Part shown: positions 25,515-64,000 of the stretch, piece by piece
Layout of the letters: each line of letters begins with the position of its first letter
Numbering within the stretch: the first letter of the stretch is position 1
Assembly: GCF_026914185.1 (NCBI RefSeq)
Contig: NC_070561.1
Span: 6,138,001-6,202,000, forward strand
Length of the DNA: 64,000 nucleotides
Source: Puccinia triticina
Lineage: Eukaryota > Basidiomycota > Pucciniomycetes > Pucciniales > Pucciniaceae
Direction of reading: 5' to 3'
The notes under the pieces: model-generated
What the model was told of the DNA's origin: nothing
Databases searched by the model: none
Seen by the model: only the letters and a program-made list of their open reading frames with translations
Position numbers and translations under genes: made by a program

Positions 25515-26150
25515 GAGGATCCGACACTGCATGGATTATCCCCTCAGACATACCCGTCCAACAAGAGCTCGGACGGGCATGTCCGACCAGATGTCGGAAA
25601 CTGGCGTCTGACAGGTGGTCGAACCCACCCGTCGGATCCTCCTGTCCGAGCAGAACTCGGACATTTCTGCTCGACGGGTTCTCGAGCAGCAAGGCCCAAC
25701 CACTTGTCGGACTTGCCAGTTCGTGCTGCAGTCGGCCATTGTCGCTCGAGCAGTCCTTGGACCAGATTGTCGGACAGCCTTGCCGGAGTAGACGTCGGAC
25801 AAGGCTGCCCGACCAGTTCCCATTGGTCGTTTTCTGCTGTTCAACAGGTCAGCTAGTCGGACAGAGCTGTCCAACAAGCTCACTTGGCGGACAGATTAAT
25901 CCAACCCTCCCATGTCCGACAAGTCCAACTCGTCGGACATGTATGTCCGACAAGTCTGACTGGTCGGACATTTTGGGTTTGACAAGTCTGACTGGTCAGA
26001 CATTTTAGGTTCGACAAGTCAGCAAAAACCTAAACCGCACCCTGAAAATCCCACTAGTGTAAAAAAAAGAAACAATGTTTTGCAACATTTAACAACAAAA
26101 TCTTGTGAACACATAAACCCATGTTCACAACAAGTCAACTGCCTTTTCTG
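25515..26150 (+). repeat. GTCCGAC/GTCGGAC-rich outer block, left arm
   Basis: Dense short inverted motifs (GTCCGAC, GTCGGAC, CGAGCAG) with a sub-repeat TTGACAAGTCTGACTGGTC near the inner side. From 25575 on it is the reverse complement of 63420-64000. The 26041-26150 part is nearly identical in both arms. No coding content. Confidence 0.75.
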
Positions 26151-26160
26151 ATATTTGCAA

Positions 26161-26770
26161 GGTGGAAACTAGGTGTAAACTAACTGTAAACCACACTTTA
26201 CAAGGTGTAAACAGCCATTTACAAGGTGTAAACCACACTTCACAAGGTTTAACCCCAAGTTTACAAGGTGTAAACCATAGTTTACAAGGTGTAAACCATA
26301 GTTTACAAGGTGTAAACCATAGTTTACAAGGTGTAAACCATAGTTTACAAGGTGTAAACCATAGTTTACAAGGTGTAAACCATAGCTTACAAGCTGTAAA
26401 CCATAGTTTACAAGGCGTAAACCACAGTTTACAAGGTGTAAGCCATAGTTTACAAGGTGTAAGCCATAGTTTACAAGGTATAAACCACAGTTTACAAGGT
26501 GTAAACCATAGTTTACAAGGTGTAAAGCATAGTTTACAAGTTGTAAACTATAGTTTACAAGGCGTAAACCATAGTTTACAAGGTGTAAACCACGGTTTCC
26601 AAGGTGCAAACCAGAGCTTACAAGGTGTAAACCACAGTCTACAAGGTGTAAACCACAGTTTACAAGGTGTAAACCACAGTTTACAACATGTAAACCACAG
26701 TTTAGAAGGTGTAAACTAGCATTTACAACATGTAAACCACCGTTTACAAGGTGTAAACTAGCATTTACAA
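26161..26770 (+). repeat. 21-bp minisatellite array, left arm outer
   Basis: About 28 head-to-tail 21-bp units built around TGTAAACCACAGTTTACA, a 7-bp inverted repeat with a 4-nt loop, joined by AGG. Units vary between CCATAG and CCACAG centres. Because 21 is a multiple of three, long frames (NHSLQGV heptads) are open on both strands; these are by-products. Confidence 0.9.
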
Positions 26771-27127
26771 GGAGCGGCAAAAAGCGCCCACCCATTTTGA
26801 GTAGCATTAGCGCGCTGTTAGCGCCGCTACGCTGCCCTATGTTTCAGCGGCGCTAACAGCGCACCAATTGTTTGTTAGTGTTAGCGTGCGGCTACAGTCA
26901 CTACGCTGCGCTACAGCGCTTTTAGGGCCTGTACCACACAAAATCTGTTTTTCTGGTGCAGGGAAAATAGTTTTTTTTTTTGCACTTTTCTGTTTTTTGA
27001 AAAACACATATCTGAAAAAACAGAATGTGAAACACAGGTACCACAAACGTCCCACCAAGACTCCTTATACCCACAATCAACCACCACCGCATCTACATCA
27101 TCAAGATCCAGCACACCCAATACAACC

Positions 27128-28406
27128 ATGGACAACACCCTTTTCGCAACCGTTGCCGCCGCCGCCACATCACTTATGGAGATGAACAAAATCTTGATTT
27201 CAGTTGCCGCTGCCGGTGTCGCTTGCAAATACCTTGGAAGTATGTGGAATACATATGAAGCATACTATGGCAATGGCGGACAAGCAAGGTACACCCGCTT
27301 CCTACTCGACGAAGTCAGACCAGACCTTTTCTGTGAAATTACTCAAATGGAACGTGCCACCTTCAACAATCTTGTTGAAGAGTTGACAATGAACGGGCTC
27401 CTCAAGAATGGCCGATCAATCTCGGTCGAAGAGCAGGTTCTTATCTTCTTGGATATTGTTTGTCACAACAACTCCATGCGCCAGACAGCTGTCAAATTCC
27501 GGCGTGGTTTGTTCACCATTACCCGGTAAGCCCGCTGTTTTTCTCTTCTCAATAGTTTGAAAGATCAAAAATACAACTGATCTTTCTGCAATTAGCTACT
27601 TTGGAAAAGTTCTTGACTCTTTGATAGCAATCTATCCCAACTATGTCAAGTTCGACATGGAATCATGTAAGCAGCCCGAAGAGATAGCAAAAAACCCGAA
27701 GTACCGAGCATTCAAGAACGCGCTAGGAGCCATCGACGGAGTTTTTATCCCAGCAAAAGTACCCGCCGAAGCTCAAAGCCCCTGGCAAAATTGCAAGCAC
27801 TTCATCGCGCAGAACGTCCTCGCCGCTGTAAATTTTGATTTTCAGTTTGTTTACATTCTTGCTGGTTGGGAAGGAAGTGCTCACGACACCCGAGTATTTA
27901 ACGATGCAACCTCAAAAGGGCTCAACATACCGCAAAAGAAATACTTCCTGGCCGACGCTGGATATGGCCTTCGGCAAGGTTTGATGACTCCGTTCCGAGG
28001 AACCCCATACCATCTGAAAGAGCAGGCCGCGGCAGGACTCAGACCAGCGAACAAAAAGGAGCTCTACAACTTGCGACACGCTACACTACGGAATATCGTC
28101 GAGCGCATGTTTGGATGCTTAAAGAGAAAATTTTCAATACTTCAGTCTGCACCCGAGATCAAGCTAAAGAAGCAGGTGCGATTAGTGTATGCACTCTGCA
28201 TGCTGTGGAACTATATTCGCAGTCATGAGAGTGCCGAGAACCTCTTTGACAATCCCAAGGAAGATTTACAAACACTTTTGCATACCCGGATGGGGGAAGA
28301 AGATTCGTTCGATGTTGCTGAGGAGGATGCAATAATGAAGCATCGACGCGAGCGACTGGCAAAGAAGCTTTGGGATCAATATGTAGCATATAAACAATCT
28401 TTTTAG
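27128..28406 (+). CDS. Harbinger (HARBI1-like) DDE transposase
   Basis: Exons 27128-27525 and 27596-28406 are joined across a 70-nt GTAAGC...CAATTAG intron with a CTGAT branch site, giving 402 residues. ATG 27128 has context ACCATGG. The N-terminus has a helix-turn-helix-like region (SVEEQVLIFLDIV...). The DDE_Tnp_4 catalytic core follows: first Asp in GAIDGVFIP, second Asp in GWEGSAHDTRVFNDA, and Glu in NIVERMFGCLKRKF, with LADAGYGL between. Family proteins cut and paste the element at TWA targets and need the Myb-like partner for nuclear import and DNA binding. Length and residues look intact. Confidence 0.93.
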
Positions 28407-28891
28407 ATGTCTATATTTCTCCATTATTTATTCTCACACATTTTGCAGTTTCTTAGTTAGATTGAAAGAGAAATGTTTCTTAGATAGATTGAGAGTGAAA
28501 TGCGATAAGAAGAGGAGCCGCAAGGTCTTTGAGATCAAGCTTTGGATTTTGTTTGTCGGCTGCTAAACACAATCGGAGCTTGGATGTGATTTCAATTTGT
28601 TAGATGGAGTGAAAGAGAAACACAACTAAAAAAGATGATGTGAAAGCAAGTGTGATAGGATGAGCAACCAGGAGGAACCGGAAGGTTGTGAGATCAAGCT
28701 TTTGTTGGTTGCCAAACGCGATTGGAGCTGAACACAATCAGACTCAGAGCTGGACACAAATGGAGCTGAGCTGAGCCAAACGAGATTGGAACCAGAGCGG
28801 TGCAGAATACAATTGGAGCTGATACATATGCGGCAAAAAATTGATTAGCCAGTGCAAAAAAAGGAGATGTCCAATGATTCAAGCTTACATG
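28407..28891. other. Harbinger intergenic spacer
   Basis: Between the two convergent genes; a repeated GATTGAGAGTGAAA / GATTGAAAGAGAAA motif. No gene seen. Presumably holds both 3' ends. Confidence 0.6.
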
Positions 28892-30007
28892 TTACTTGTT
28901 CTTTGCCTCCTCAACCTTCTTTTCGAGCCACATCTGGCAAACTTCATCATTGGAGGTACGACAGAGGGCAATGAAGGTGCGGGCCTTGCTCTTGTTCTCA
29001 AGTACAGATGCAAAATCAATGTAGGTTTCACTGAAGACTCGTCCCAAGTATCGGTCAGCACATAGTTGAAGTGCAATGTCGGAAACATTAGGTTCGCTCG
29101 GTGCAATGGCGGAGGTAGACGGATTGCTGCGTGGTTGAGTGGTACATAGGGCTGAGGAAATCTTGGAGAATTCTCCCATGAAATTCTTCGAGCTTTCCGA
29201 TACTGCATTTATAGCGCTGCTGATGCTCCCCATCTCGCCTTTGATGAGAGCATTCTTTGATTTGCGTACTTGTTTTGTTGTGTTTGAACCAGCGGTCTTG
29301 AGAGAGGATTGGGGTTCAATATCGATGTCGCTATTGCTGTCATCATCACTGAGAGGAACAAACTTTCTCTTGCATGCTGGTGTGAGTTTGACAGCTTCGG
29401 TGGTAGTTGGCACAAGCTCGGTTTTTGCTATTTCTCCAGTAGCAGACTTGCCCAAAAAGACACTCTGGGCAAGATCGTATACCAGAAACGGTTTGTCCTT
29501 CAGTTTTGCAAAGTTTTGACGAGGATGCGCCGCTATCAACTCGTCCCACACGGTATCGTCAGCAGTGACAGTACCTCGATCTTCGTCCCAACCAAAGCCA
29601 CTTTGGTCTCGGAGAAACTTGTAATCAATATAGAGCGTGCGGAGAGCATTCTTCTGGTTTTTGATTTGATCGAGGCTGAGTGTGAGACTGTACTTTGTAT
29701 TCAACTTCTGCTGGACAATAGGCCAGGCTTCCTTCTTCAAGCCACCGTTATCAGTTTCTAAGCCAGCGGCGTACTGAGTTGCAATAGACTCGAGAAGTGA
29801 CATCTTCTGATCGGTGGTCCAAGTGTGGTTGGGGGTTTTGACTTCACTTTCATTGAGTTTCTTGGGTTTGGCTGTCTGCTTTGTGGGCTTGATTTTCTTG
29901 GACTGAGCCATTGGAGTAGGTGTTGTTGTTGGGTTGGCCGTTGATGAGGGTGGTGGGATGGTGTCCATTAGGACAATCGGGTCAATGAGATTGATGGACT
30001 TGGGCAT
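28892..30007 (-). CDS. Harbinger Myb/SANT-like DNA-binding protein
   Basis: 371 residues, single exon, ATG at 30007. A basic Pro/Thr/Lys-rich N-terminus (PKSIN...KKIKPTKQTAKPKK) is followed by a Myb/SANT-like domain at about residues 60-160 (TWTTDQKMSLLESIATQYAA, WPIVQQKLNTKY, ALRTLYIDYKFLRDQSGFGWD, VWDELIAAHP). A Ser/Lys-rich linker and a helical C-terminus end in EKKVEEAKNK. In PIF/Harbinger elements this partner binds the element ends and brings the nuclease to DNA. Its location, convergent with the transposase inside the same TIRs, fits. It may instead be a domesticated-type trihelix factor, but position argues against that. Confidence 0.88.
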   Translation of the reverse strand: MPKSINLIDPIVLMDTIPPPSSTANPTTTPTPMAQSKKIKPTKQTAKPKKLNESEVKTPNHTWTTDQKMSLLESIATQYAAGLETDNGGLKKEAWPIVQQKLNTKYSLTLSLDQIKNQKNALRTLYIDYKFLRDQSGFGWDEDRGTVTADDTVWDELIAAHPRQNFAKLKDKPFLVYDLAQSVFLGKSATGEIAKTELVPTTTEAVKLTPACKRKFVPLSDDDSNSDIDIEPQSSLKTAGSNTTKQVRKSKNALIKGEMGSISSAINAVSESSKNFMGEFSKISSALCTTQPRSNPSTSAIAPSEPNVSDIALQLCADRYLGRVFSETYIDFASVLENKSKARTFIALCRTSNDEVCQMWLEKKVEEAKNK

Positions 30008-30487
30008 TTGATGCTACTGGGATAGCAACAGAGAGAAAAATAGCTTCGAAAAACAGGTTCGGACCTGTTTTTGGAAATGGGTGATTTTCAATGAAATCTG
30101 TTTTCTGGATGTTCCATAAAACAGGTGCTGTGGTACGTGTTTTTTGGTGAAAACTGTTTTTTGCACAAAAAATTGATTTCCGTGGGAAAAACAGTTTTTC
30201 AACCCGCTATGGTACAGGCCCTTAGCGGAAAAAAAGGCCTTTTTTTCAGCTAAAAGCACTGTGGCGCACCGTAGCGTGCGCTCTTTTGCGCCCTGCTTGT
30301 GGAGCGTTAGCGCAATTGCGCGCATCTGCGCTAACTCTACGCTAACAGCTAAATTAGCTGCGCACCCTTTGCGCGTAGAGTTAGCGCAGAGAAGGCGCAA
30401 TTCCGCTAACGCTACGCTAAAATTTAGCAGAATTCCGCTAAGCTATGCCACGCTAACGCTACGGTTAGCGTAGCTGGCCCACCATTG

Positions 30488-31390
30488 GTGTAAACCATAG
30501 TTTACAAGGTGTAAACCACAGTTTGAAAGGTGGAAACCATAGTTAAAAGTGTAAACCACCATTTACAAGGTTTAAACCACAGTTCACCCACAGTTTACAA
30601 GGTGTAAACTAATATTTAGAAGGTGTAAACCACCATTTACAAGGTTTAAACCACAGTTTGCAAGGTGTGAACCCTATTTTACAAGGTGTGAACCACATTG
30701 AAAAAGGTTTAAACCACAGTTTTGTAAACTACCATTTACAAGGTGTAAACTACGATTTACAAGGTGTGAACCAGTATTTACAAGTTGTAAACTATCATTT
30801 AGAAGGTGTAAACTACCATTGACAAGATGTAAACTACCATTTAAAAGCTGTAAACCACACTTTGCAAGGTTTAAACCCCAGTTGACAAGGTGTAAACCAT
30901 AGTTTACAAGGTGTAAACCATAGGTTACAAGGTGTAAACCATAGTTTCCAAGGTGCAAACCATAGTTTCTAAGGTGTAAACCAAAGTTTACAAGTTGTAA
31001 ACCACCATTTACAAGTTGTAAACCACACTTGACAAGGTGAAAACCACAGTTCACAAGGTTTAACACATCATTTACAAGGTTTAAACCACAATTTACCCAC
31101 AGTTTACAAGGTGTAAAATAATATTTAGAAGGTGTAAACACCAGTTTACAAGGTGTAAGCCACAGTTTACAAGGTGTAAGGCACATTTTACAAGGTGTAA
31201 GCCACAGTTTACAAGGTGTAAGCCACAGTTTACAAGGCATAAGCCACAGTTTACAAGGTATGAACCCCAGTTTACAAGGTTTAAAGCACAGTTTACAGGG
31301 TGCAAACCACCATTTACAAGGGGTAAACAATACTTTACAATGTGTAAACCACAATTTACAAGGTTTAAACCACACTTTAGAAGGCTTAAC
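30488..31390 (+). repeat. Degenerate 21-bp array, left arm
   Basis: Variant units of the TGTAAACC/GTTTACA repeat with many substitutions and small deletions. The order of variants is mirrored in 58242-59050, which shows the two stretches descend from one array. Confidence 0.88.
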
Positions 31391-31908
31391 TAGAGATGGC
31401 CAGTGGGTACCCGGCACCTGTTGAGGGGTACCGGCCACTGCCCTTTTACTCGTTTGTAGGTGCCGTGTACGGGTCCAGGTATGCAATTTGGGCGGGAAAA
31501 TCACTGGGTACCCGGGTACCAAACAGGCACCCGCCATTGTCAGCCGCATGAACGGTCATAGAGTGGGGTACCCACCTCCATGACCGGCAATTGTTAAGCG
31601 GAGTACACAACACATCCCACGCAATGACCGGACATCGAGTAAGGTGATCACAATGGCCGGCCACCAAGCCAGGTGTGTACTCCGCTCAATGACCGGCCTA
31701 TGTCCGCACTCAATGGCCAATCATTGGGTTGAGTGCGCATCCCACTCAATGGCCGTTCATTGAGTGGGATGTGTACCCCCCTTAATGTGCGATCATCGAG
31801 TGGGGGTACCGCCAGTACCTGTTGGCAGGTGCAGTGTCCAAAATTGGAGAAATTCATACCAAGTACCCGCACCCGCCACAGATACCCTGACCCGTGTGGC
31901 CATCTCTA
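31391..31908. mobile_element. hAT-type MITE, left copy
   Basis: Terminal inverted repeats TAGAGATGGCCA / TGGCCATCTCTA fit the hAT YARNG start. Flanks GGCTTAAC and GTTTAAAC are a degraded 8-bp duplication. The interior is made of CACTCAATGGCC / GGCCATTGAGTG type inverted motifs and GGTACCC boxes; no transposase. The same element is at 57710-58241 in inverted orientation. Confidence 0.75.
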
Positions 31909-32044
31909 GTTTAAACCACAGTTTGCAAGGTGTAAACCACAGTTTAGAAGGTGTAAACCACAGTTTACAAGGTGTAAACCTCAGTTACAAGTTGTAAACC
32001 ACAGTTTACAAGGTGTAAACCACAGTTTACAAGGTGTAAACCAC
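31909..32044 (+). repeat. Short 21-bp array segment, left arm
   Basis: About six TGTAAACC units between the hAT MITE and the CACCAGG foldback insertion; continuous with 34196-34790 once that insertion is removed. Confidence 0.85.
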
Positions 32045-34195
32045 CACCAGGAAAAATCAGTAGTCACTAGATGACAACTGACATGACACCTGCTCCAGCT
32101 GGCTATCCAGCCTCTAGTGCAATTTTCACAAGCTGATCCTCAGCTTTGTCCCAGGCCCAGCTGCTGCTCAGCCTTGGCCCAGGCCCAGCTGCTGCTCAGC
32201 CTTGGCCCAGGCCCAGCTGCTGCTCAGCCTTGGCCCAGGCCCAGCTGCTGCTCAGCCTTTGCCTGAGCAAGAACGGGCATTGATAAATGCACACCCGTCC
32301 CCCGGGGGCACGCCCACGCCCACCCCCTTTGAAAAGCTTTATCAAGGGCGTGCGAGGGCGTGCACGCCCCCACATAGGCGTGACAAGCGTGCACCGTGCC
32401 TGCTCGCCGAGAGCCCCTCGGTGGGCAGGTGCATGTACATACATATACCTGCTCGCCGAGAGCCCCTCGGCGGGTAGGTGTATGTATCCCTGCTCGCCGA
32501 GAAGGATAACTCTCGGCGAGCAAGTATACAAACACCTGCCCGCCAAGCCTGCTCACCTAGAGCCCCTCGGCGGGCAGGTACAGATCCCACCTCGCCGAGA
32601 GCCTTGCCTGCTCGCGAGAAGGATAACTCTCGGCGAGCAGGGCATGTATACCTGCTCACCGAGAGCCCCTCGGCGGGCAGGTGCATGTATACCTGCTCGC
32701 CGAGAGAAATTATCGGCGAGCAGGCATACAGATCCCACCTCGCCGAGAGCCTCTCGGCGAGAAGGTATACATACACCTGCCCACCAAGCCTGCTCACCGA
32801 GAGCCCCTCGGCGGGCAGGTGCATTTATACCTGCTCGCCGAGAGGAATCCTTGGCGAGCAGGCATACAGATCCCACCTCGCCGAGGGCCTCTCGGGAGCA
32901 GGTATACTTGAACCTGCCCGCCGAGGGGCTCTTGGCGAGCAGGCTCGCCGGGCAAGTGTTTGTATACCTGCTCGCCGAGAGTTATCCTTCTCGGCGAGCA
33001 GGCAAGGCTCTCGGCGAGCGGGGATATGTATGCCTGCTCGCCGAGAGGTGTATGCCTGCTCGCCATGGATTTCTCTCGGCGAGCAGGTATACATGCACCT
33101 CCCGCCGAGCCCGCTCGCCAAGAGCCCCTCGTCGGGCAGGTGCAAGTATACCTGCTCGCCGAGAGGCTCTTGGCGAGGTCGGATATGTATGCCTGCTCGC
33201 CGAGGAGGTATAAATGCACCTGCCCGCCGAGGGGCTCTCGGTGAGCAGGCTCGGCGGGCAGGTGTATGTATACCTGCTCGCCGAGAGGCTCTCGGCGAGG
33301 TGGGATCTGTATGCCTGCTCGCCGAGGATTTCTCTCGGCGAGCAGGTATACATGCACCTGCCCGCCGAGGGGCTCTCGGTGAGCAGGTATACATGCACCT
33401 GCTCGCCGAGAGTTATCCTTCTCGGCGAGCAGGGATACATACACCTACCCGCCGAGGGGGGCGGGCAGGTGTTTGTATACCTGCTCGCCGAGAGTTATTC
33501 TTCTCGGCGAGCAGGCAAGGCTCTCGGCGAGCAGGTGCATGTATACCTGCTCTCCGAGAGGCTCTCGGCGAGGTGGGATCTGTACCTGCCCGCCGAGGGG
33601 CTCTCGGCGAGCAGGTATACTTGCACCTGCCCGCCGAGGGGCTCCCAACGAGCCATGGTGCACGCCCGTGAACGCCCATGTGGGGGCGTGCACGCCCTCG
33701 CACGCCCATACAGCGGCGTGCATGCCCTTCGACTCGCACACCCTTGATAAAGGGCGTGCGGTCCACCTGACCGGTCCGCATATTCCCCCCTTGAAGGATT
33801 GTTCCCGCGCGCGCGGGAGACATCCTTCAAGGGTGTGTTACACCCAACCAGCGCCACACGCCCTTTTCGAAGGGCGTGGGCGAGGGTGTGCCCCCGGGGG
33901 ACGGGTGTGCGTTTATCAACACCCGTTCTTGCTCAAGCAAAGGCTGAGCAGTGGCTTTTCCTGTGCCAAGACTGAGGGGCAGCTGGGCCTGGGCCAAGGC
34001 TGAGCAGCAGCTGTGCCTGGGACAAAGCTGAGGAGCAGCTTGTGAAAAATGCAAGCTAGAGGCTTCAGCTGTGCCAAAATGGGCACTGAGCTGTGCGCCA
34101 GCCAGCCCTTAACTAGCAGATGGAGTAGCTTTGGAGCTGAAACCAGAGCTGTGTTATGTCAGTTGTCATCAACTGACTACTTTTTTTTCCTGGTG
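32045..34195. mobile_element. CACCAGG foldback element with palindromic core
   Basis: A 2151-bp unit with about 45-bp terminal inverted repeats (CACCAGGAAAAA...GATGACAACTGACAT), inserted in the array with a 3-bp duplication CAC. Mirror layers are: four 28-bp CAGCTGCTGCTCAGCC repeats on the left with counterparts near 33950-34045, then ACACCCGTCCCCCGGGGG on both sides, GGGCGTGCACGCCC boxes, and a core of CTCGCCGAG palindromes. It has no coding capacity. The CAC ends and 3-bp duplication suggest mobilisation by a CACTA-like transposase. Confidence 0.8.
32396..33655. repeat. Core array of CTGCTCGCCGAG hairpins
   Basis: Roughly thirty hairpin units read CTGCTCGCCGAGAG then CCTCGGCGGGCAG or the reverse, separated by 8-10 nt GTGCATGTATA-type spacers. 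The two arms of each hairpin differ systematically (CTCGCC against GGCGGG), leaving a defined wobble or mismatch near the base. GC-rich, in strong contrast to the flanking AT-rich arrays. Open frames (LAEK, SPRAPRRAG and similar) are repeat by-products. Confidence 0.8.
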
Positions 34196-34790
34196 CACAG
34201 TTTGCAAGGTGTAAACCACAGTTTACAAGGTGTAATCCACTGTTCACAAGTTGTAAACCACAGTTTATAAGGTGTAAACCACAGTTTACAAGGTGTAAAT
34301 CACAGTTTACAATGTGTAAACCACACTTTACAAGGTGGAAAACACAGTTTACAAGATTTAAACCAACATTTACAAGGTCAAAACCACAGTTTACAAGATG
34401 TAAACCACCATTTACAAGGTTTAAATCACAGTTTACAAGGTGCAAACCCCACTTTACAAGGTGTAAACCACATCTCACAAGGTTGAAACCACAGTTTACA
34501 AGGTGTAAACTACCATTTACAAGGTTTAAACCACAGTTTCCAAGGTGTAAAGCACAGTTTACAAGGTCTAAAGCACAGTTTACATAGGTGTAGACCACAG
34601 TTTACAAGGTGTAAAACACAGTTTACAAGGTGTCAACCACAGTTAATTTTACAGGATGTAAAATCAGGTTTAGAAGGTGAACACCCTGGTTTGCAAGGTG
34701 AAAAAAACTGGTTTACAAGGTACAAAGTCTGGCTTACAAGGTGTCACAAGGTGCAAACCGCAGTTTACAACGTTTAAACCAAACTTCGAA
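34196..34790 (+). repeat. 21-bp array, left arm inner
   Basis: About 28 TGTAAACC/GTTTACA units, degenerate toward 34650-34790, mirrored by 56850-57250. Confidence 0.88.
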
Positions 34791-34874
34791 TTGTAACCAC
34801 ATTTTCCAAGGTGTTCATGTTGCATTGATTTTTTGGGGGGCTTAAATAATTGACTCTCAAAAGTTGAATTTCCT

Positions 34875-37295: not shown

Positions 37296-37345
37296 TCGCC
37301 GACTTCGACGACTGCTTGAAGATCCCACCCCCCTTCCCCTCCGCT

Positions 37346-37759: not shown

Positions 37760-38097
37760 CGGTGTTAGTGGTGGTGGTGCTTGAGGCCCCGGAGTTAGCG
37801 GCGGAGGAAGATGAGTCGCAAATTGTCTAAGGTTTGCCCGCCCCTTGCCCTCCCAACAGGCTTGGGCCCGCCTCCTCGTTTCAGGATCACCGCCTCAGGG
37901 GGCTCCAACGCCTACAGCTATACCCTTGCCCTCGCACCGGGCTTGGGTATCCTCACAACCAGCGCCTCCGCCTCAAGATGCTTAGGGCGCCCCTTGCTAC
38001 GTTTCTTTTCTCCTTGCGTTGCTTCTATGATTGGGCCTTAGGCCCGTATGCCTCACCGATTACTTCTTTTCTTCTTGTCACGCCATGAGCCCCTCAG

Positions 38098-53229: not shown

Positions 53230-56200
53230 GCCTGACACTGTTAATGGTGCATCTGGCACTGTTAATAGTGCCTAATAGTCCCTCTGGCACTGTTAATAGT
53301 TCCTCTGGAACTGTTAATAGTTCCTCTGGAACTGTTAATAGTTCCTCTGGAACTGTTAATAGTTCCTCTGGGACTGTTAATAGTTCCTCTGGAACTGTTA
53401 ATAGTTCCTCTGGAACTGTTAATAGTTCCTCTGGAACTGTTAATAGTTCCTCTGGAACTGTTAATAGTTCCTCTGGAACTGTTAATAGTTCCTCTGGAAC
53501 TGTTAATAGTTCCTCTGGAACTGTTAATAGTTCCTCTGGAACTGTTAATCGTTCCTCTGGAACTGTTAATAGTTCCTCTGGAACTGTTAATAGTTCCTCT
53601 GGAACTGTTAATAGTTCCTCTGGAACTGTTAATAGTTCCTCTGGAACTGTTAATAGTTCCTCTGGAACTGTTAATAGTTCCTCTGGAACTGTTAATAGTT
53701 CCTCTGGAACTGTTAATAGTTCCTCTGGAACTGTTAATAGTTCCTCTGGAACTGTTAATAGTTCCTCTGGAACTGTTAATAGTTCCTCTGGAACTGTTAA
53801 TAGTTCCTCTGGAACTGTTAATAGTTCCTCTGGAACTGTTAATAGTTCCTCTGGAACTGTTAATAGTTCCTCTGGAACTGTTAATAGTTCCTCTGGAACT
53901 GTTAATAGTTCCTCTGGAACTGTTAATAGTTCCTCTGGAACTGTTAATAGTTCCTCTGGAACTGTTAATAGTTCCTCTGGAACTGTTAATAGTTCCTCTG
54001 GAACTGTTAATAGTTCCTCTGGAACTGTTAATAGTTCCTCTGGAACTGTTAATAGTTCCTCTGGAACTGTTAATAGTTCCTCTGGAACTGTTAATAGTTC
54101 CTCTGGAACTGTTAATAGTTCCTCTGGAACTGTTAATAGTTCCTCTGGAACTGTTAATAGTTCCTCTGGAACTGTTAATAGTTCCTCTGGAACTGTTAAT
54201 AGTTCCTCTGGAACTGTTAATAGTTCCTCTGGAACTGTTAATAGTTCCTCTGGAACTGTTAATAGTTCCTCTGGGACTGTTAATAGTTCCTCTGGAACTG
54301 TTAATAGTTCCTCTGGGACTGTTAATAGTTCCTCTGGAACTGTTAATAGTTCCTCTGGAACTGTTAATAGTTCCTCTGGAACTGTTAATAGTTCCTCTGG
54401 AACTGTTAATAGTTCCTCTGGAACTGTTAATAGTTCCTCTGGAACTGTTAATAGTTCCTCTGGAACTGTTAATAGTTCCTCTGGAACTGTTAATAGTTCC
54501 TCTGAAACTGTTAATAGTTCCTCTGGAACTGTTAATAGTTCCTCTGGAACTGTTAATAGTTCCTCTGGAACTGTTAATAGTTCCTCTGGAACTGTTAATA
54601 GTTCCTCTGGAACTGTTAATAGTTCCTCTGGAACTGTTAATAGTTCCTCTGGAACTGTTAATAGTTCCTCTGGAACTGTTAATAGTTCCTCTGGAACTGT
54701 TAATAGTTCCTCTGGAACTGTTAATAGTTCCTCTGGAACTGTTAATAGTTCCTCTGGAACTGTTAATAGTTCCTCTGGAACTGTTAATAGTTCCTCTGGA
54801 ACTGTTAATAGTTCCTCTGGAACTGTTAATAGTTCCTCTGGAACTGTTAATAGTTCCTCTGGAACTGTTAATAGTTCCTCTGGAACTGTTAATAGTTCCT
54901 CTGGAACTGTTAATAGTTCCTCTGGAACTGTTAATAGTTCCTCTGGAACTGTTAATAGTTCCTCTGGAACTGTTAATAGTTCCTCTGGAACTGTTAATAG
55001 TTCCTCTGGAACTGTTAATAGTTCCTCTGGAACTGTTAATAGTTCCTCTGGAACTGTTAATAGTTCCTCTGGAACTGTTAATAGTTCCTCTGGAACTGTT
55101 AATAGTTCCTCTGGAACTGTTAATAGTTCCTCTGGAACTGTTAATAGTTCCTCTGGAACTGTTAATAGTTCCTCTGGAACTGTTAATAGTTCCTCTGGAA
55201 CTGTTAATAGTTCCTCTGGAACTGTTAATAGTTCCTCTGGAACTGTTAATAGTTCCTCTGGAACTGTTAATAGTTCCTCTGGAACTGTTAATAGTTCCTC
55301 TGGAACTGTTAATAGTTCCTCTGGAACTGTTAATAGTTCCTCTGGAACTGTTAATAGTTCCTCTGGAACTGTTAATAGTTCCTCTGGAACTGTTAATAGT
55401 TCCTCTGGAACTGTTAATAGTTCCTCTGGAACTGTTAATAGTTCCTCTGGAACTGTTAATAGTTCCTCTGGAACTGTTAATAGTTCCTCTGGAACTGTTA
55501 ATAGTTCCTCTGGAACTGTTAATAGTTCCTCTGGAACTGTTAATAGTTCCTCTGGAACTGTTAATAGTTCCTCTGGAACTGTTAATAGTTCCTCTGGAAC
55601 TGTTAATAGTTCCTCTGGAACTGTTAATAGTTCCTCTGGAACTGTTAATAGTTCCTCTGGAACTGTTAATAGTTCCTCTGGAACTGTTAATAGTTCCTCT
55701 GGAACTGTTAATAGTTCCTCTGGAACTGTTAATAGTTCCTCTGGAACTGTTAATAGTTCCTCTGGAACTGTTAATAGTTCCTCTGGAACTGTTAATAGTT
55801 CCTCTGGAACTGTTAATAGTTCCTCTGGAACTGTTAATAGTTCCTCTGGAACTGTTAATAGTTCCTCTGGAACTGTTAATAGTTCCTCTGGAACTGTTGA
55901 TAGTTCCTCTGGAACTGTTAATAGTTCCTCTGGAACTGTTAATAGTTCCTCTGGAACTGTTAATAGTTCCTCTGGAACTGTTAATAGTTCCTCTGGAACT
56001 GTTAATAGTTCCTCTGGAACTGTTAATAGTTCCTCTGGAACTGTTAATAGTTCCTCTGGAACTGTTAATAGTTCCTCTGGAACTGTTAATAGTTCCTCTG
56101 GAACTGTTAATAGTTCCTCTGGAACTGTTAATAGTTCCTCTGGAACTGTTAATAGTTGCTCTGGAACTGTTAATAGTTCCTCTGGAACTGTTAATAGTTC

Positions 56201-56750
56201 CTCTGGAACTGTTAATAGTTCCTCTGGAACTGTTAATAGTTCCTCTGGAACTGTTAATAGTTCCTCTGGAACTGTTAATAGTTCCTCTGGAACTGTTAAT
56301 AGTTCCTCTGGAACTGTTAATAGTTCCTCTGGAACTGTTAATAGTTCCTCTGGAACTGTTAATAGTTCCTCTGGAACTGTTAATAGTTCCTCTGGAACTG
56401 TTAATAGTTCCTCTGGAACTGTTAATAGTTCCTCTGGAACTGTTAATAGTTCCTCTGGAACTGTTAATAGTTCCTCTGGAACTGTTAATAGTTCCTCTGG
56501 AACTGTTAATAGTTCCTCTGGAACTGTTAATAGTTCCTCTGGAACTGTTAATAGTTCCTCTGGAACTGTTAATAGTTCCTCTGGACCTGTTAATAGTTCC
56601 TCTGGACCTGTTAATAGTTCCTCTGGAACTGTTAATAGTTCCTCTGGGACTGGTCCCTCTGGCACTGTTAATAGTTCCTCCAGAACTGTTAATAGTCCCT
56701 CTGGCACTGTTGATGGTTCCTCCAGAACTGTTAATAGTCCCTCTGGCACT
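53230..56750 (-). repeat. Homogeneous 21-bp GTTCCAGAGGAAC array, right arm
   Basis: About 167 units in opposite orientation to the left array. A few isolated variants (GGGACT near 53370, 54273 and 54315; TCGTTC near 53549; GTTGATAG near 55898; TTGCTC near 56156) sit in otherwise identical units. Both edges are degenerate. Long frames on both strands (SSSGTVN, VPEELLT, LLIVPLE) are by-products of the period. Confidence 0.93.
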
Positions 56751-56849
56751 GGAAATTCAACTTTTGAGAGTCAATTATTTAAGCCCCCCAAAAAATCAAT
56801 GCAACATGAACACCTTGGAAAGTTTGGTTTTAATTTGAAGTTTGGTTTA

Positions 56850-57709
56850 AACAATGTAAACTGCGGTTTGGACCTTGTGACACCTTGTCAACCAGGCTTT
56901 GTACCTTGTAAACCAGTTTTTTTCACCTTGCAAACCAGGGTGTTCACCTTCTAAACCTGATTTTACATCTTGTAAAATTAACTGTGGTTGACACCTTGTA
57001 AACTGTGTTTTACACCTTGTAAACTGTGGTCTACACCTATGTAAACTGTGCTTTAGACCTTGTAAACTGTGCTTTACACCTTGGAAACTGTGGTTTAAAC
57101 CTTGCAAATGGTAGTTTACACCTTGTAAACTGTGGTTTCAACCTTGTGAGATGTGGTTTACACCTTGTAAAGTGGGGTTTGCACCTTGTAAACTGTGATT
57201 TAAACCTTGTAAATGGTGGTTTACATCTTGTAAACTGTGGTTTTGACCTTGAAAATGTTGGTTTATACCTTGTAAACTGTGGTTTACACCTTGTAAACTG
57301 TGGTTTATACCTTGTAAACTGTGGTTTACACCTTGTAAACTGTGGTTTACACCTTGTAAACTGTGGTTTACACCTTGTAAACTGTGGTTTACACCTTGTA
57401 AACTGTGGTTTACACCTTGTAAACTGTGGTTTACACCTTGTAAACTGTGGTTTACACCTTGTAAACTGTGGTTTACACCTTGTAAACTGTGGTTTACACC
57501 TTGTAAACTGTGGTATACACCTTGTAAACTGTGGTTTACACCTTGTAAACTGTGGTTTACACCTTGTAAACTGTGGTTTACACCTTGTAAACTGTGGTTT
57601 ACACCTTGTAAACTGTGGTTTACACCTTGTAAACTGTGGTTTACACCTTTTAAACTGTGGTTTACACCTTGTAAACTGTGGTTTACACCTTGCAAACTGT
57701 GGTTTAAAC
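56850..57709 (-). repeat. 21-bp array, right arm inner
   Basis: About 40 TTTACACC/GTAAACTGTGG units; 57290-57700 is nearly perfect while 56850-57280 is degenerate and mirrors 34340-34790. Confidence 0.9.
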
Positions 57710-58241
57710 TAGAGATGGCCAGACGGGTCAGGGTATCGGTGACGGGTGCGGGTACTTGGTATGAATTTCTCCAATTTTGGACACAAGGACCCGGACACTG
57801 CACCCGCCAACGGGTACCGGCGGTGCCCCCACTCGATGATCGCACATTAAGGGGGGTACGCATACCACTCAATGAATGGCCATTGAGTGAGATGCGCACT
57901 CAACCCAATGATCGGCCATCGAGTGCGGACGTAGGCCGGTCATTGAGCGGAGTACACACCTGGCTTGGTGGCCGGCCATTGTGATCACCCCACTCGATGT
58001 CCGGTCATTGCGTGGGATGTGTTGTGTACTCCGCTTAACAATTGCCGGTCATTGAGGTGTGTACCCCACTCTATGACCGTTCATGCGGCTGACAATGGCG
58101 GGTGCCTGTTTGGTACCCGGGTACCCGGTGGATTTCCCGCCCAAATTGCATACCCGGACCCGTACACTGCACCTACAAACGAGTAAAAGGGCAGTGGCCG
58201 GTACCCCTCAACAGGTGCCGGGTACCCACTGGCCATCTCTA
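57710..58241. mobile_element. hAT-type MITE, right copy
   Basis: Ends TAGAGATGGCCA / TGGCCATCTCTA, flanked by GTTTAAAC and GTTTAAGC (8-bp duplication, one change). Inverted counterpart of 31391-31908. It predates the duplication of the arms because both arms have it at the same place. Confidence 0.78.
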
Positions 58242-59050
58242 GTTTAAGCCTTCTAAAGTGTGGTTTAAACCTTGTAAATTGTGGTTTACACCTTGTAAAG
58301 TATGGTTTACCCCTTGTAAATGGTGGTTTGCACCCTGTAAACTGTGCTTTACACCTTGTAAACTGGGGTTCATACCTTGTAAACTGTGGCTTACACCTTG
58401 TAAACTGTGGCTTACACCTTGTAAACTGGTGTTTACACCTTCTAAATATTAACTGTGGGCAAATTGTGGTTTGAACCTTGTAAGTGATGTGTTAAACCTT
58501 GTAAACTGCGGTTTTCACCTTGTGAAGTGTGGTTTACACCTTGTAAATGGTGGTTTACATCTTGTAAACTGTGGTTTACACCTTGGAAACTATGGTTTGC
58601 ACCTTGGGAACTATGGTTTAAACCTTGTAAACTATGGTTTACACCTTTTCAACTGGGGTTTAAACCTTGCAAAGTGTGGTTTACAGCTTTTAAATGGTAG
58701 TTTACATCTTGTCAATGGTAGTTTACACCTTCTAAATGATAGTTTAGAACTTGTAAATACTAGTTTACACCTTGTAAATGGTAGTTTACACCTGGTAAAT
58801 TGTAGTTTACAAAACTGTGGTTTAAACCTTGTTCAATGTGGTTCACACCTTGTAAAGTGGGGTTTACACCTTGCAAACTGTGGTTTAAACCTTGTAAATG
58901 GTGGTTTACACCTTCTAAATATTAGTTTACACCTTGTAAACTGTGGGTGAACTGTGGTTTAAACCTTGTAAATGGTGGTTTACACCTTGTCAACTATGGT
59001 TTAAACCTTTGAAACTGTGGTTTACACCTTGTAAACTATGGTGTACACTA
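58242..59050 (-). repeat. Degenerate 21-bp array, right arm
   Basis: Variant-by-variant mirror of 30488-31390, including the CAAAACTGTGG junction. Confidence 0.88.
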
Positions 59051-60495
59051 ACGGTGGGTGTCAGCGGCGGCGATACCAAGACTACTGTCTTCTAGCTACG
59101 CCGGCTGCAACTTTAGGCGCTATAGTTATAGCGGAAGGATGACGAGCTCGGATTCAGAGGGTAAAATTCCGGCAACTTAAAGAAAGAATTATATTTAAGC
59201 ACGGAGGGGCTTAACTCAAAGAGTTAAGGGTATTTAAGTGCCCTCCGTAACTATTCAGGGCCTGTAAGACAGGGGTGGTGGAATGCCTGAAGCAGCGGGG
59301 GCCTGGAATTCAGGTTTGGTTCGCTGGGATACCCCGGTAGAAACTTTCAGAGGAAGGGTTTCTATGAGAGAGAAACTAGGGAGACTCACTGATTAGTAGG
59401 CAATACTTTCACCTACAAAGAGTCCGGGCTGAGTTTCCTAGGAGAGAACCGCGAGCGCTTCGTAGAGTAGCGCTGAAGAAGTTTTTCTTTTCGAACTTCA
59501 AAGAAGTCGGACAACGGAGTAGAGAATCTTTCGGTCGAAGGTGTGTTTTGATGGAAGGCGCTATGGTCAATGTCAGGGAGGATGAAGATGTCCTTTCCCC
59601 TTTGGCGGAGGAGGGTCTCTTTATATAGAGTTTTCTATGGATCTCTCGTAGAGATCCAGGTCTCTAGGGATCCTTTGCTTTTTTCCGCGGGAGCTCATCT
59701 CTTCGTCATGACTTCTTGTCACGGAGATGAGCCCTTCTCTTTTAGGGGAAGCTAAGATGAGCATTTTCTATGCTACCGCGAGTCTTTTCGTAATGTTTCT
59801 TGCTCATGCTTTCTTGTTTTAGCGATTAGTCGCATGTCTCCCGTTGCGAGTGTAGCCTCTTTCTTGAGCTATCTTAGTCTCAAAACTTTCCTTTGGTATT
59901 ATTTGTATTTCTGCGCCTCCTTTCTTATTTTAAGGAGGCGCTATTTATTTATGTATTTTTCTTTTCATACTTAGATTTTTTGTACGCTAAAAAAAAAAGC
60001 GCTTTTCATTTATTGTCCAGCTAGCTCTGGTACAGTAGCTAGCTGACAGTGGGCCAGCTACGCCAACCGTAGCGTAGCAGAATTCCGCTAAATTTTAGCG
60101 TAGCGTTAGCGGAATTGCGCCTTCTCTGCGCTAACTCTACGCGCAAAGGGTGCGTAGCTAATTTAGCTGTTAGCGTAGCATTAGCGCAGATGCGAGCAAT
60201 TGCGCTAACGCTACACACGCAGGGCGCAAAAGAGCGCACACTACAGTGCGCCACAGTGCTTTTAGCTGAAAAAAAGGCCTTTTTTTCCGCTAAAAGCGCT
60301 GTAACGCAGCGTAGTGACTGTAGCGGCACGCTAACACTAACAAACAATTGGTGCGCTGTTAGCGCCACTGAAACATAGCGCAGTGTAGCGGCGCTAACAG
60401 TATGCTAACGCTACTCAAAATGGGCGGGCGCTTTTTGCCGCTACGCTAACGCTAAGTGGCCCTGTAGCGTAGTGTAGCGTAGTGGCCCACCGTTG
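59051..60495. mobile_element. GC-rich hAT-like element, right copy, split by a solo LTR
   Basis: Ends (T)AACGGTGGGCCAGC and GTGGCCCACCGTTG; flanks GTGTACAC and GTTTACAC are an 8-bp duplication with one change. Interior is dense GCTAACGCTACGC-type inverted motifs, non-coding. This copy retains the terminus lost from the left copy. Confidence 0.68.
59059..60048. mobile_element. Solo LTR (990 bp)
   Basis: Starts TGTCAGC, ends GCTGACA, flanked by a perfect 5-bp duplication GTGGG (59054-59058 and 60049-60053). No internal genes, so it is the product of LTR-LTR recombination. Related at its start to 22357. It is inserted in the terminal repeat of the GC-rich element, only in the right arm. Confidence 0.88.
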
Positions 60496-61256
60496 TTTAC
60501 ACCTTGTAAACTATAGTTTACACCTTTGAAACTGTGGTTGACACCTTGTAAATGGTAGTTTACACCTTGTATACTGTGGTTTACACCTTGTATACTGTGG
60601 TTTACACCTTGTAAACTGTGGTTTACACCCTGTAAACTGTGGTTTACACCTTGTAAACTGTGGTTTACACCCTGTAAACTGTGGTTTACACCCTGTAAAC
60701 TGTGGTTTACACCCTGTAAACTGTGGTTTACACCCTGTAAACTGTGGTTTACACCTTGTAAACTGTGGTTTACACCTTGTAAACTGTGGTTTACACCTTG
60801 TAGACTGTAGTTTACACCTTGTAGACTGTGGTTTACACCTTGTAAACTGTGGTTTGCACCTTTTAAACTATGGTTTACACCTTATAAACTGTGGTTTACA
60901 CCTTCTAAATATTAGTTTACACCTTGTAAACTGTGGGTGAACTGTTGTTTAAACCTTGTAAATGGTGGTTTACACCTTGTTCACCTTGCAGTAAACTGTG
61001 GTTTATACCCTGTAAACTGTGATTTACACCTTGTGGATGGTGGTTTACACCTTTTAAATGGTGGTTTACACCTTGTAAACAGTTGTTTACACCTTGTAAA
61101 CTATGGTTTAAACCTTGTAAACAGTTGTTTACACCTTTTAAACTGTGGTTTACACCTTTTAAATGGTAGTTTACACCTTGTAAACTGTGGTTTACACCTT
61201 GTAAACTGTGGTTTAAACCTTGTAAACTGTGGTTTAAACCTTGTAAACTGTGGTTT
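60496..61256 (-). repeat. 21-bp array, right arm
   Basis: TTTACACC units; 60600-60780 has a homogeneous CACCCTGTAAACTG subset. Continuous with 62456-63413 when the foldback insertion is removed. Confidence 0.88.
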
Positions 61257-62452
61257 CACTTCAAGGATAATTAAATTTCCCAAAAAAATTACTCAAAGTT
61301 TGAGGTTGGGAAAATCATTGAAAAAAAATCACTTCGTACTGAAAAAAAATGCAAACTGAGCGTGCTCAGCCAAAAGAATAAAAATGTGTCAGACTGAGTG
61401 AAAAACAATGGGGCACATTTTTGGGGTGATTTGTTGGACAGGCCTGCACAAGGCCCGCATGGGCCCATTGAAAATGTAGCATTTGTTTGGAATTCCGATG
61501 CTCTGCTAAAATGTGAAATGGGTCAAACTGAATGAAAAACATGGGGGTACATTTTTGGGGAGATTTTTTGGACGGGCCTGAATGAGGCCCACATGTCCCC
61601 CACAAAGCCCACTGGGCCCATTGAAAGAGTAGCCTTGGTCAAGAATGCCTATGCCCAGCTAAGAAACAAAAATGTGTCAACCTGAGTAAGAAACATGGGG
61701 CCACACTTTTGGGGAGGGCTTATTGACAGACCTGCATCAGGCCCATCAGGGCCCACCCAAAGCTGGTTTGGCCAACCCAGAAGTAGTCTTGGTTAAGAAT
61801 GCCCATATGATGTTTCAGAACAGCACCAATTGACCACTAATCAACAGAAGATATTGAAGGGCTTCTGACATCTGTATGACATTTGTGCACTCACAGAAAG
61901 TATGTCCAGGCCATTTCCTTTTCCTTGAAACCCTGTTGGCCTGTATGGGCCTGATGCAGGCCCGTCCAAAAAGCCTCCCCAACAATGTGCCCCTAGGGTT
62001 TTTACTCAGTCTGACACATTTTATTTCTTAGATGAGCATATGCTTTCTTGACCAAGGCTACTCTTTCAATGGGCCCAGTAGGCTTTGTGGGGGCCATGTG
62101 GGCCTCATTCAGGCCCGTCCAGAAAATCTCCCCAAAAATGTACCCCCATGTTTTTTATTCAGTTTGACCCATTTCACATTTTAGCAGAGCATCCGAATTC
62201 CAAACAAACACTACTTTTTCAATGGGCCCAACGGGCCTGTTAGAGGCCCATGCAGGCCTTGTGCAGGCCCGTCCAACAAATCACCCTAATAATGTGCCCC
62301 ATTGTTTTTTACTCAGTCTGACACATTTTTATTTTTTTGGCTGAGCATGCTCAGTTTGCATTTTTTTCAGTACAGAGTGATTTTTTTTCAATGATTTTCC
62401 CAACCTCAAACTTTGGGTATTTTTTTTGGGAAATTCAATTCTCCTTGAAGTG
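61257..62452. mobile_element. CACTT foldback element (1.2 kb)
   Basis: Nearly the whole unit is two inverted halves (about 61257-61850 and 61870-62452) with ends CACTTCAAGG / CCTTGAAGTG. It inserted in the array with a 3-bp duplication TTT (61254-61256 and 62453-62455). The halves share GTGTCAGACTGAGT, GGCCCGTCCA-type and GGGCCCATTGAAA motifs. No coding capacity. The CACT end and 3-bp duplication fit a CACTA-type non-autonomous element. Confidence 0.82.
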
Positions 62453-62455
62453 TTT

Positions 62456-63413
62456 AAACCTTGTAAACTGTGGTTTACACCTTGTAAACTGTGGTTTACA
62501 CCTTCTAAATATACACCTTGCAAACTGTGCTTTAAACCTTGTAAATGGTGGTTTAAAACTTCTAAATATTAGTTTACACCTTGTAAACTGTGGTTGAACT
62601 GCGGTTTAAACCTTGTGTATGGTGGTTTACACCTTGTAAACTGTGGTGTTCACCTTGCAGTAAACTGTGGTTTACACCTTGTAAACTGTGATTTACACTT
62701 TGTGAATGGTGGTTTACACCTTTTAAATGGTGGTTTACACCTTTTAAATGGTGGTTTACACCTTGTAAACAGTGGATTACACCTTGTAAACTATGTTTTA
62801 CACCTTGTAAGCTGTGGTTTACACCTTGTAAACTGTGGTTTACACCTTGTAAACTGTGGTTTACACCTTGTAAACTGTGGTTTACACCTTGTAAACTGTG
62901 GTTTACACCTTGTAAACTGTGGTTTACACCTTGTAAACTGTGGTTTACACCTTGTAAACTGTGGTTTACACCTTGTAAACTATGGTTTACGCCTTGTAAA
63001 CTATGGTTTACACCTTGTAAACTATGGTTTACACCTTGTAAACTATGGTTTACACCTTGTAAACTATGGTTTACACCTTGTAAACTACGGTTTACACCTT
63101 GTAAGCTATGGTTTACACCTTGTAAACTATGGTTTACACCTTGCAAGCTATGGTTTACACCTTGTAAACTATGGTTTACGCCTTGTAAACTATGGTTTAC
63201 GCCTTGTAAACTATGGTTTACACCTTGTAAACTATGGTTTACGCCTTGTAAACTATGGTTTACACCTTGTAAACTATGGTTTACACCTTGTAAACTATGG
63301 TTTACACCTTGTAAACTTGGGGTTAAACCTTGTAAAGTGTGGTTTACACCTTGTAAATGGTTGTTTACACCTTGTAAAGTGTGGTTGACAGTTAGTTTAC
63401 ACCTAGTTTCCAC
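62456..63413 (-). repeat. 21-bp array, right arm outer
   Basis: About 40 units; 62810-63310 is homogeneous, with CCACAG and CCATAG centre variants grouped in blocks. Mirror of 26161-26770 but longer. Confidence 0.9.
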
Positions 63414-63419
63414 CTTGTA

Positions 63420-64000
63420 AACATCAGAAAAGGCAGTTGACTTGTTGTGAACATGGGTTTATGTGTTCACAAGATTTTGTTGTTAAATGTTGCAAAACAT
63501 TGTTTCTTTTTTTTACATTCATGGGATTTTCAGGGTGCGGTTAAGGTTTTTGCTGACTTGTCAAACCTAAAATGTCCGACCAGTCAGACTTGTCAAACCC
63601 AAAATGTCCGACCAGTCAGACTTGTTGGACACACATGTCCGACAAGTTGGACTTGTCGGACATGGGAGGGTCGGACTAACCTGTCCGACAAGCTCACTGG
63701 TCGGACAGCTCTGTCTGACTAGCTGACCTGTCAAACAGCAGAAAACAACCAGTGGGAACTGGTCGGGCAGCCTTGTCTGAAGTCTACTTGGGCAAGGCTG
63801 TCCAACAATCTGGTCCGAGGACTGCTCGAGCGACAATGGCCGACTGCAGCACGAACTGGCAAGTCCGACAAGTGGTCGGTCCTCGCTGCTCGAGAACCCG
63901 TCGAGCAGAAATGTCCGACTTCTGCTCGGACAGGAGGATTCAACAGGTGGGATCGACCACCTGTTGGACGCCAGTTTCCGACATCTGGTCGGACATGCCC
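63420..64000 (-). repeat. GTCCGAC-rich outer block, right arm
   Basis: Reverse complement of 25575-26150 with high identity, including the stretch ending ACAAAATCTTGTGAACAC. Truncated by the window edge. Confidence 0.78.

What the first reader, a model, noticed from the sequence alone, without database searches (positions are those of the whole stretch)
25515..64000. Giant (more than 38 kb) mirror-image structure: candidate giant foldback transposon
Seen: at least seven modules recur in reverse order and opposite strand around a 16-kb centre, with shared private variants in degenerate repeats. Each arm has different later insertions (Harbinger and CACCAGG foldback on the left; solo LTR and CACTT foldback on the right), so this is not a simple assembly reflection. 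Known: Drosophila FB elements have long inverted termini made of short tandem repeats. Inference: this may be a very large FB-like or TIR element whose centre carries a CACTA-like transposase and several unknown genes. Alternative: a segmental inverted duplication.
Basis: partly seen in the sequence, partly recalled or inferred. Interest (0 to 1): 0.88.

Follow-up and report, generated by a model that had tools for sequence, protein, structure and literature searches.

The report
Giant mirror-armed TET-carrying CACTA-type transposon
A 38.5-kb stretch of a rust-fungus chromosome is one jumping-DNA element whose two long mirror-image arms are built from thousands of bases of 21-base repeats, and it carries a DNA-demethylase-like gene but, as far as seen, no jumping enzyme of its own.

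Summary
The mirror is real and is a transposon. Outer ends are window 25525 and 64050 (50 bp past the window): inverted CACTGCATGGATTATCCCC termini and a 3-bp target duplication (CGA). The genome has 23 paired ends of this kind; all 13 pairs whose two flanks I read carry matching 3-bp duplications. This rules out a segmental duplication or assembly reflection. What remains (about 18.7 kb) is a TET/JBP-like dioxygenase gene between mirror arms of about 6 and 9 kb. The arms consist largely of two kinds of 21-bp repeats; repeat A has a conserved core, GTTTACACCTTGTAAA, and a variable linker. Termini and duplication place it with CACTA/EnSpm elements. Apart from the nested one, no listed CACTA-transposase hit lies in any pair (capped lists), so it is presumably moved in trans. 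TET-carrying EnSpm elements are already described from Puccinia (Kojima 2025). New here, as far as I read, are the foldback-like arms, the transposase-free TET cargo, and one repeat unit filling both arms. Verdict: new variant of a known kind; the binding-site role is inferred.

The parts
25525..26184 (+). left outer terminal inverted repeat (660 bp, unique sequence), starts CACTGCATGGATTATCCCC; TSD CGA at 25522-25524
26185..26772 (.). array A, left arm (21-bp units)
26773..26924 (.). unique spacer shared with right arm 60290-60442
26925..30221 (.). nested Harbinger element (not part of the giant element): DDE_Tnp_4 ORF 27621-28406, Myb/SANT ORF 28892-30007, TSD TTA
30222..32044 (.). left arm continued: spacer, array A (30487-31384), unique anchor (31391-31911), array A (31912-32044)
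32045..34195 (.). nested CACCAGG foldback element, TSD CAC (not part)
34196..34872 (.). left arm: array A and spacer shared with 56752-56880
34875..37292 (.). array B, left (115 units; 106 identical AACTGTTAATAGTTCCTCTGG)
37293..40778 (+). centre of the element, including the TET/JBP-like gene; matched in the C8, C17 and C16 copies
38961..40490 (+). TET/JBP-like 2OG-Fe(II) dioxygenase, ORFs 38961-39926 and 39927-40490 (Pfam PF20515), divided by an in-frame TGA
40779..52944 (.). nested transposon CACCACGGGTGCA..TGCACCCGTGGTG, TSD TA (40777-40778/52945-52946); carries the CACTA-like transposase ORFs 48431-49771(-); not part of the giant element
42680..47686 (-). Copia retrotransposon nested in the nested transposon, LTRs 99.5% alike, TSD CGGTG
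53237..56751 (.). array B, right (166 units; 150 identical to the commonest left-arm unit)
56752..59058 (.). right arm: spacer, array A (56980-57706), unique anchor (57707-58241), array A (58242-59048)
59059..60048 (.). nested solo LTR, TSD GTGGG (not part)
60049..61256 (.). right arm: spacer and array A
61257..62452 (.). nested CACTT foldback element, TSD TTT (not part)
62453..63390 (.). array A, right outer
63391..64000 (-). right outer terminal inverted repeat; continues to 64050 (G000:C4:6202050), then TSD CGA

Best explanation
A non-autonomous CACTA/EnSpm-type DNA transposon with foldback architecture, about 18.7 kb before later insertions. It has CACTG..CAGTG ends, makes a 3-bp target duplication, and carries a TET/JBP-like dioxygenase gene as its only recognised gene, between mirror arms of about 6.3 and 8.6 kb built largely of 21-bp repeats. 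SHOWN: ends, target duplications, copies, a centre without transposase in the copies read, TET-like gene, arrays. INFERRED: a CACTA transposase encoded elsewhere moves it in trans; the conserved 16-bp cores, spaced two helical turns apart, are multiple binding sites for that protein; the TET-like protein, where intact, removes methylation from this element and its kin. Arrays grow and shrink by unequal exchange, and in this copy one unit variant has taken over both arms.
For: Shared ends and CGA/CGA duplication. 19-bp terminus, up to 2 mismatches: 32 forward and 23 reverse hits, backwards control 0 and 1; 23 of 23 reverse ends face a forward end 7.3-69 kb away, 9 of 32 forward ends are orphans (lengths). 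Matching 3-bp TSD in 13 of 13 pairs with both flanks read, about 9 independent sites; 10 pairs untested. Empty site of the nested element in C8, C17 and C16. TET inside at least 4 of 23 pairs (150 listed hits). No PF18759 hit (0 of 29) and no listed PF02992 hit (0 of 150) inside any pair; of the listed hits of the nested transposase's protein only the nested one itself (by inspection). Array probe: 791 hits, control 0; of the 100 listed (exact and one-mismatch hits, the latter only up to contig C5), 84 lie inside pairs and 16 within 23 kb right of an orphan left end (hand count). Repeat A: 365-398 distinct units from 6 copies, mismatch 0.12-0.14 per site in the 16-bp core and 0.28-0.32 in the 5-bp linker at four parsing phases. 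The core is kept, with one base changed, in the C7 subfamily, whose ends are only about 61% alike.
Against: No autonomous partner was identified and no transposase shown to bind the arrays. Dyad symmetry of unit A is not beyond shuffles (0.10 reach it); unit B 0.0135. The TET frame here and in C8 and C17 holds TGA inside the domain, so this copy's protein may be inactive. In 19 of 23 pairs no TET hit is listed, so TET seems not needed for spread. Hit lists are capped. Six of the 23 pairs were read whole, one (C16, 69 kb) in part and 16 not inside, so a transposase could have been missed.
Confidence: 0.78

Rival explanations
1. Segmental inverted duplication or assembly reflection.
For: Two arms about 93% alike in mirror order.
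Against: Ends are exact, carry inverted termini and 3-bp duplications, and recur in 23 pairs; each arm has different insertions with their own duplications.
Confidence: 0.01
2. An autonomous giant element whose own transposase is the CACTA-like gene at 48431-49771.
For: The gene lies between the arms and is CACTA-like: its homologues with an organism name are from rust fungi, one from Atractiella, and one carries the name DUF4218-containing.
Against: It is inside a separate transposon with termini CACCACGGGTGCA and TA duplication; C8, C17 and C16 have the empty site.
Confidence: 0.03
3. The 21-bp arrays are passive minisatellites, expanded by slippage in an element that needs only its outermost bases; they bind nothing.
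For: Array length varies greatly between copies and arms; unit dyad symmetry is weak against shuffles.
Against: Conserved core against variable linker independent of parsing phase; the core is kept, one base changed, in a subfamily with diverged ends; two unrelated units share the 21-bp period; the C2 and C14 copies, mostly ends plus arrays with no gene recognised, have moved.
Confidence: 0.3
4. A foldback-type element of another superfamily (P/Galileo, Mutator or KDZ).
For: Foldback arms of tandem repeats are known in Galileo and, by a title in a search listing, in Mutator-like elements; KDZ and TET genes are abundant in this genome.
Against: 3-bp duplications in 13 of 13 pairs; KDZ elements make 7-8 bp ones (PMC12730594) and Mutator-type longer ones (recalled); none of 126 KDZ places taken from the list falls in a pair.
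Confidence: 0.05

Closest known systems
TET+ EnSpm transposons of rust fungi (Kojima 2025, PMC12730594; abstract, sections 3.1 and 3.4, figure legends and found passages read)
   Same: Puccinia host, CAC..GTG termini, 3-bp TSD, TET/JBP gene inside the element
   Different: Those are classified by an encoded transposase; in the copies read here none was recognised. Array-built mirror arms are not mentioned in the main text ('tandem repeat', 'subterminal', 'foldback' and 'giant' each 0 occurrences); its tables and supplements were not seen
Galileo and other foldback elements (PMC3573991 passages; PMC3688188 abstract)
   Same: Long inverted arms with internal tandem repeats; the copies with the longest arms are non-autonomous; the repeats contain extra transposase binding sites (shown for Galileo)
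   Different: P superfamily; arms up to about 1.3 kb in D. mojavensis; here 6-9 kb arms, 3-bp TSD and a TET gene
Plant CACTA elements with subterminal repeats (PMC8978399 passages)
   Same: CACT termini, 3-bp TSD, closely spaced direct and inverted subterminal repeats
   Different: Subterminal zones there are several hundred bp; here kilobases, with two different 21-bp units

Membership tests
CACTA/EnSpm | CAC..GTG termini in inverted repeats | tested here: met
   CACTG..CAGTG at both ends
CACTA/EnSpm | 3-bp target site duplication | tested here: met
   13 of 13 pairs with both flanks read, of 23 pairs
CACTA/EnSpm | subterminal direct and inverted repeats | tested here: met
   21-bp arrays in both arms, opposite orientation
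CACTA/EnSpm | encodes an EnSpm-type transposase | tested here: not met
   no PF18759 (29) and no listed PF02992 (150) hit inside any of 23 pairs (lists capped); hence called EnSpm-type and non-autonomous, not an autonomous member
TET+ transposon (Kojima) | TET/JBP gene within termini and TSD | tested here: met
   PF20515 in the window and in at least 4 of 23 pairs
TET+ transposon (Kojima) | PU-type dioxygenase by tree | not tested
   no tree made; the 10 of 13 homologues with an organism name are Puccinia proteins
Foldback/Galileo | long inverted arms of tandem repeats | tested here: met
Foldback/Galileo | longer TSD (length recalled) and P-superfamily transposase | tested here: not met
   3-bp TSD; the P transposase itself was not searched for
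KDZ | 7-8 bp TSD and KDZ transposase | tested here: not met
Segmental inverted duplication | no defined transposon ends or TSD | tested here: not met

The most novel reading that the evidence does not exclude
A transposase-free family that carries a TET/JBP demethylase as cargo and is moved in trans by CACTA transposases. Its kilobase array arms are many-site landing platforms that outcompete the autonomous elements for transposase, while its TET-like protein reopens silenced kin, so that it is at once parasite and helper. The mirror arms pair or exchange so that array units spread from one arm to the other (in this copy 106 of 115 and 150 of 166 units are one and the same, unlike the arms of C8 and C17).
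Probability: 0.2. Interest if true: 0.75.

Novelty: new variant of a known kind. Interest (0 to 1): 0.55.

Why it matters
It shows that TET cargo can sit in an element without a recognised transposase, a case not covered by the parts of the published TET+ survey that I read. It extends foldback architecture to CACTA-type elements at kilobase scale. A family of 23 paired copies, from array-only (7.3 kb) to TET-bearing, makes array growth and arm-to-arm homogenisation measurable. It also warns that genes between two mirror arms need not belong to the element.

Tried and rejected
Dyad symmetry as a strong argument: 10% of shuffles reach unit A's value, so dropped as proof. CpG depletion of the arms as a sign of methylation or TET action: arrays have CpG observed/expected 0.00-0.20 against 0.92 in the left flank, but a 21-bp unit of this composition lacks CpG about half the time (my estimate, no call), so not used. 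Wholesale arm conversion: trees of outer ends and of an inner anchor show that the arms mostly keep separate lineages (outer ends of one element group together in C8, C16 and C15, not in C4, C17, C14, C2, C7, C10 or C11; at the inner anchor only C2's two arms group, weakly), so homogenisation is claimed only for array B of C4. Solved-structure search of the TET-like ORF gave only one chance-level match, E 0.52. Reading two large copies failed for the same reason. Literature: the listings showed no title or abstract start on foldback TET or EnSpm elements in Puccinia other than Kojima 2025; the library lacks most subscription journals, and Iyer et al. 2014 was not read (recalled, and as cited by Kojima).
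Full report
WHERE IT IS. The window is G000:C4:6138001-6202000 of an unnamed 122.8-Mb genome in 18 contigs. The TET-like ORF of the C16 copy is 97% identical, over 57% of its length, to a Puccinia triticina protein. With 18 contigs and this size a P. triticina haplotype is likely (inference; chromosome number recalled).

IS THE MIRROR REAL. Yes. With arrays masked, five unique anchors recur in reverse order and opposite strand, and the arrays between them do too. After fetching 20 kb to the right, the match stops at 25525 on the left and 64050 on the right. There both arms read CACTGCATGGATTATCCCC inwards and the flanks carry CGA on both sides.

OTHER COPIES. The first 576 bp give 59 matches in the genome. 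The 19-bp terminus with up to 2 mismatches gives 32 forward and 23 reverse places, against 0 and 1 for the backwards control. All 23 reverse ends pair with a forward end 7.3-69 kb away (median 13.85 kb); 9 forward ends are orphans. I read both flanks of 13 of the 23 pairs: all 13 have the same 3 bp on both sides (CGA, AGG, TGG, CCC, CTG, AAG, AAT, TAA, and CCA five times). The five CCA pairs have identical flanks, so there the element sits at one place of another repeat that has spread; independent sites number about nine. Ten pairs were not tested. Single flanks were read for 13 further ends, which cannot be tested alone.

WHAT BELONGS TO IT. In the C8, C17 and C16 copies, sequence matching the window up to 40778 runs straight into sequence matching 52945 onwards. 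In the window, 40779-52944 begins CACCACGGGTGCA, ends with its inverse and is flanked by TA on both sides; the three other copies show the site with a single TA. It is therefore a separate transposon, possibly of the ESTA or EnSpm kind that Kojima describes (TA duplications for ESTA; PMC12730594), but I did not test that assignment. It holds the CACTA-like transposase ORFs 48431-49771 and a Copia element, 42680-47686, with CGGTG duplications. The arms hold four more insertions, each with its own duplication. Without these, about 18.7 kb remain (one search gives 18,743 with slightly different borders). The only recognised gene left is a TET/JBP-like dioxygenase at 38961-40490 (Pfam PF20515, E 2.5e-10 and 2e-30 for its two ORFs), divided by an in-frame TGA. 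The C8 and C17 copies also have TGA in the domain, while at least one other copy is open through the domain.

COPIES WITH LESS. The C14 (7.3 kb) and C2 (9.8 kb) copies are mostly ends plus arrays: 64% of each matches a 21-bp unit with up to 5 mismatches, no listed TET hit lies in them, and their longer ORFs read, by eye, as repeat. The C7 copy (13.6 kb), of a subfamily with ends about 61% alike, has arrays of 21-22 bp; its five ORFs of 150 aa or more are short, and one of them, 177 aa, that by eye resembles a tyrosine recombinase matched no Pfam family. TET falls inside 4 of 23 pairs (C4, C8, C16, C17), counted on the 150 listed hits, so at least 4. No PF18759 hit (29) and no listed PF02992 hit (150) falls inside a pair; of the listed hits of the nested transposase's protein only the nested one itself does (by inspection). 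The C8 copy has a Helitron in its left arm (Pfam Helitron_like_N and PIF1).

THE ARRAYS. Unit A is GTTTACACCTTGTAAACTGTG, unit B AACTGTTAATAGTTCCTCTGG; both repeat every 21 bp. A 27-bp probe of unit A (one base off the commonest form, up to 2 mismatches) has 791 hits in the genome and 0 in the control. Only 100 are listed (exact hits, then one-mismatch hits up to contig C5): 84 lie inside pairs and 16 within 23 kb right of an orphan left end (hand count; distances). Across 1205 A units (365 distinct) from six copies, the 16-bp core GTTTACACCTTGTAAA varies less (0.12-0.14 mismatches per site among distinct units) than the 5-bp linker (0.28-0.32); the linker is the most variable 5-bp window in each of four parsing phases. 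The same core, with one base changed, stands in the C7 subfamily. This is what repeated binding sites would look like; mutation bias or exchange between copies is not excluded. Dyad symmetry is weak for A (0.10 of shuffles reach it) and better for B (0.0135).

ARM EXCHANGE. In this copy one B unit makes up 106 of 115 units in the left arm and 150 of 166 in the right. In C17 it makes up 2 of 71 and 19 of 37; in C8 0 of 11 plus 32 of 44 on one side and 2 of 33 on the other; in the single arrays of C14, C2 and C16 1 of 9, 2 of 45 and 0 of 15. So one unit has come to fill both arms here. Independent expansion of a unit present in both arms is not excluded. Outside the arrays the arms are not homogenised: an inner anchor keeps two arm lineages across C4, C8 and C17, with C4 in reverse orientation, and outer ends of one element group together only in C8, C16 and C15.

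HOW IT LIKELY WORKS. Shown: it moved (exact ends, duplications, copies), and copies in which no transposase was recognised moved. Inferred: a CACTA/EnSpm transposase from elsewhere acts on the ends. The genome has many candidates: 150 PF02992 hits listed, and among them 37 pairings with a TET hit on the same strand 8-30 kb downstream, against 1 upstream and 9 on the opposite strand, either side. No terminus like ours (up to 2 mismatches) lies within 30 kb of these 37 (nearest 33 kb), so their ends differ. By analogy with Galileo, where transposase sites were found in tandem repeats of long arms (PMC3688188, abstract), the cores may be such sites. In Galileo too the copies with the longest arms lack the transposase (PMC3573991, passages). 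Kojima suggests that transposon TET proteins help escape methylation (abstract); whether this copy's gene works is doubtful.

KNOWN OR NEW. TET+ EnSpm elements with CAC..GTG ends and 3-bp duplications are known from Puccinia. The foldback arms and the transposase-free TET cargo were not in the parts of that paper that I read nor visible in the listings. Supplements were not available. I file this as a new variant of a known kind.

Noticed in passing
genome-wide, G000 (e.g. C2:5485150/5500253, C17:1256117/1240934): 37 CACTA transposase (PF02992) hits have a TET hit on the same strand 8-30 kb downstream, 24 of them at 14.5-15.8 kb; controls 1 (upstream) and 9 (opposite strand, either side). This looks like a large family of TET-bearing CACTA elements with fixed spacing (on capped lists of 150 and 150).
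   Followed up: partly
window 23456-25524 and 64051-66364 (C4:6161456-6204364): The giant element sits inside a 4.4-kb element with about 290-bp inverted ends and a 9-bp duplication TATTGCTAT (Mutator-like by that length, recalled), itself inside a repeat that the C7 copy shows without it.
   Followed up: partly
C2, C7, C11, C12, C13, C14, C15, C16 copies of the C7 subfamily: Eleven elements (five with both flanks, six with one flank read) share the same 12-bp flanks (ttgttggagcca / ccattccaaatg, in either orientation), so this element spread as a passenger inside another repeat, or hit one site repeatedly.
   Followed up: no
G000: At least 152 TET-like (PF20515) and 185 KDZ (PF18758) matches in one 123-Mb genome.
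   Followed up: no
window 32045-34195 and 61257-62452: Two further small foldback elements with CAC..GTG ends and 3-bp duplications (CACCAGG, CAC; CACTT, TTT): mirror structure may be common among CACTA-type elements here.
   Followed up: partly
L033:2667-3200 (-), inside the C7 copy: A 177-aa ORF that by eye resembles a tyrosine recombinase (RLAEL-like motif, recalled); no Pfam family at E up to 1.
   Followed up: partly
window 5773-22224: Large direct repeats left of the element, e.g. 5773-6569/21428-22224 at 99% and 10542-11383/17985-18826 at 99.6%, offsets 15.7 and 7.4 kb; may be tandem or nested LTR elements.
   Followed up: no
C16:3812480-3881466: A 69-kb copy with matching CCC duplications, probably swollen by nested insertions; interior only partly read.
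   Followed up: partly
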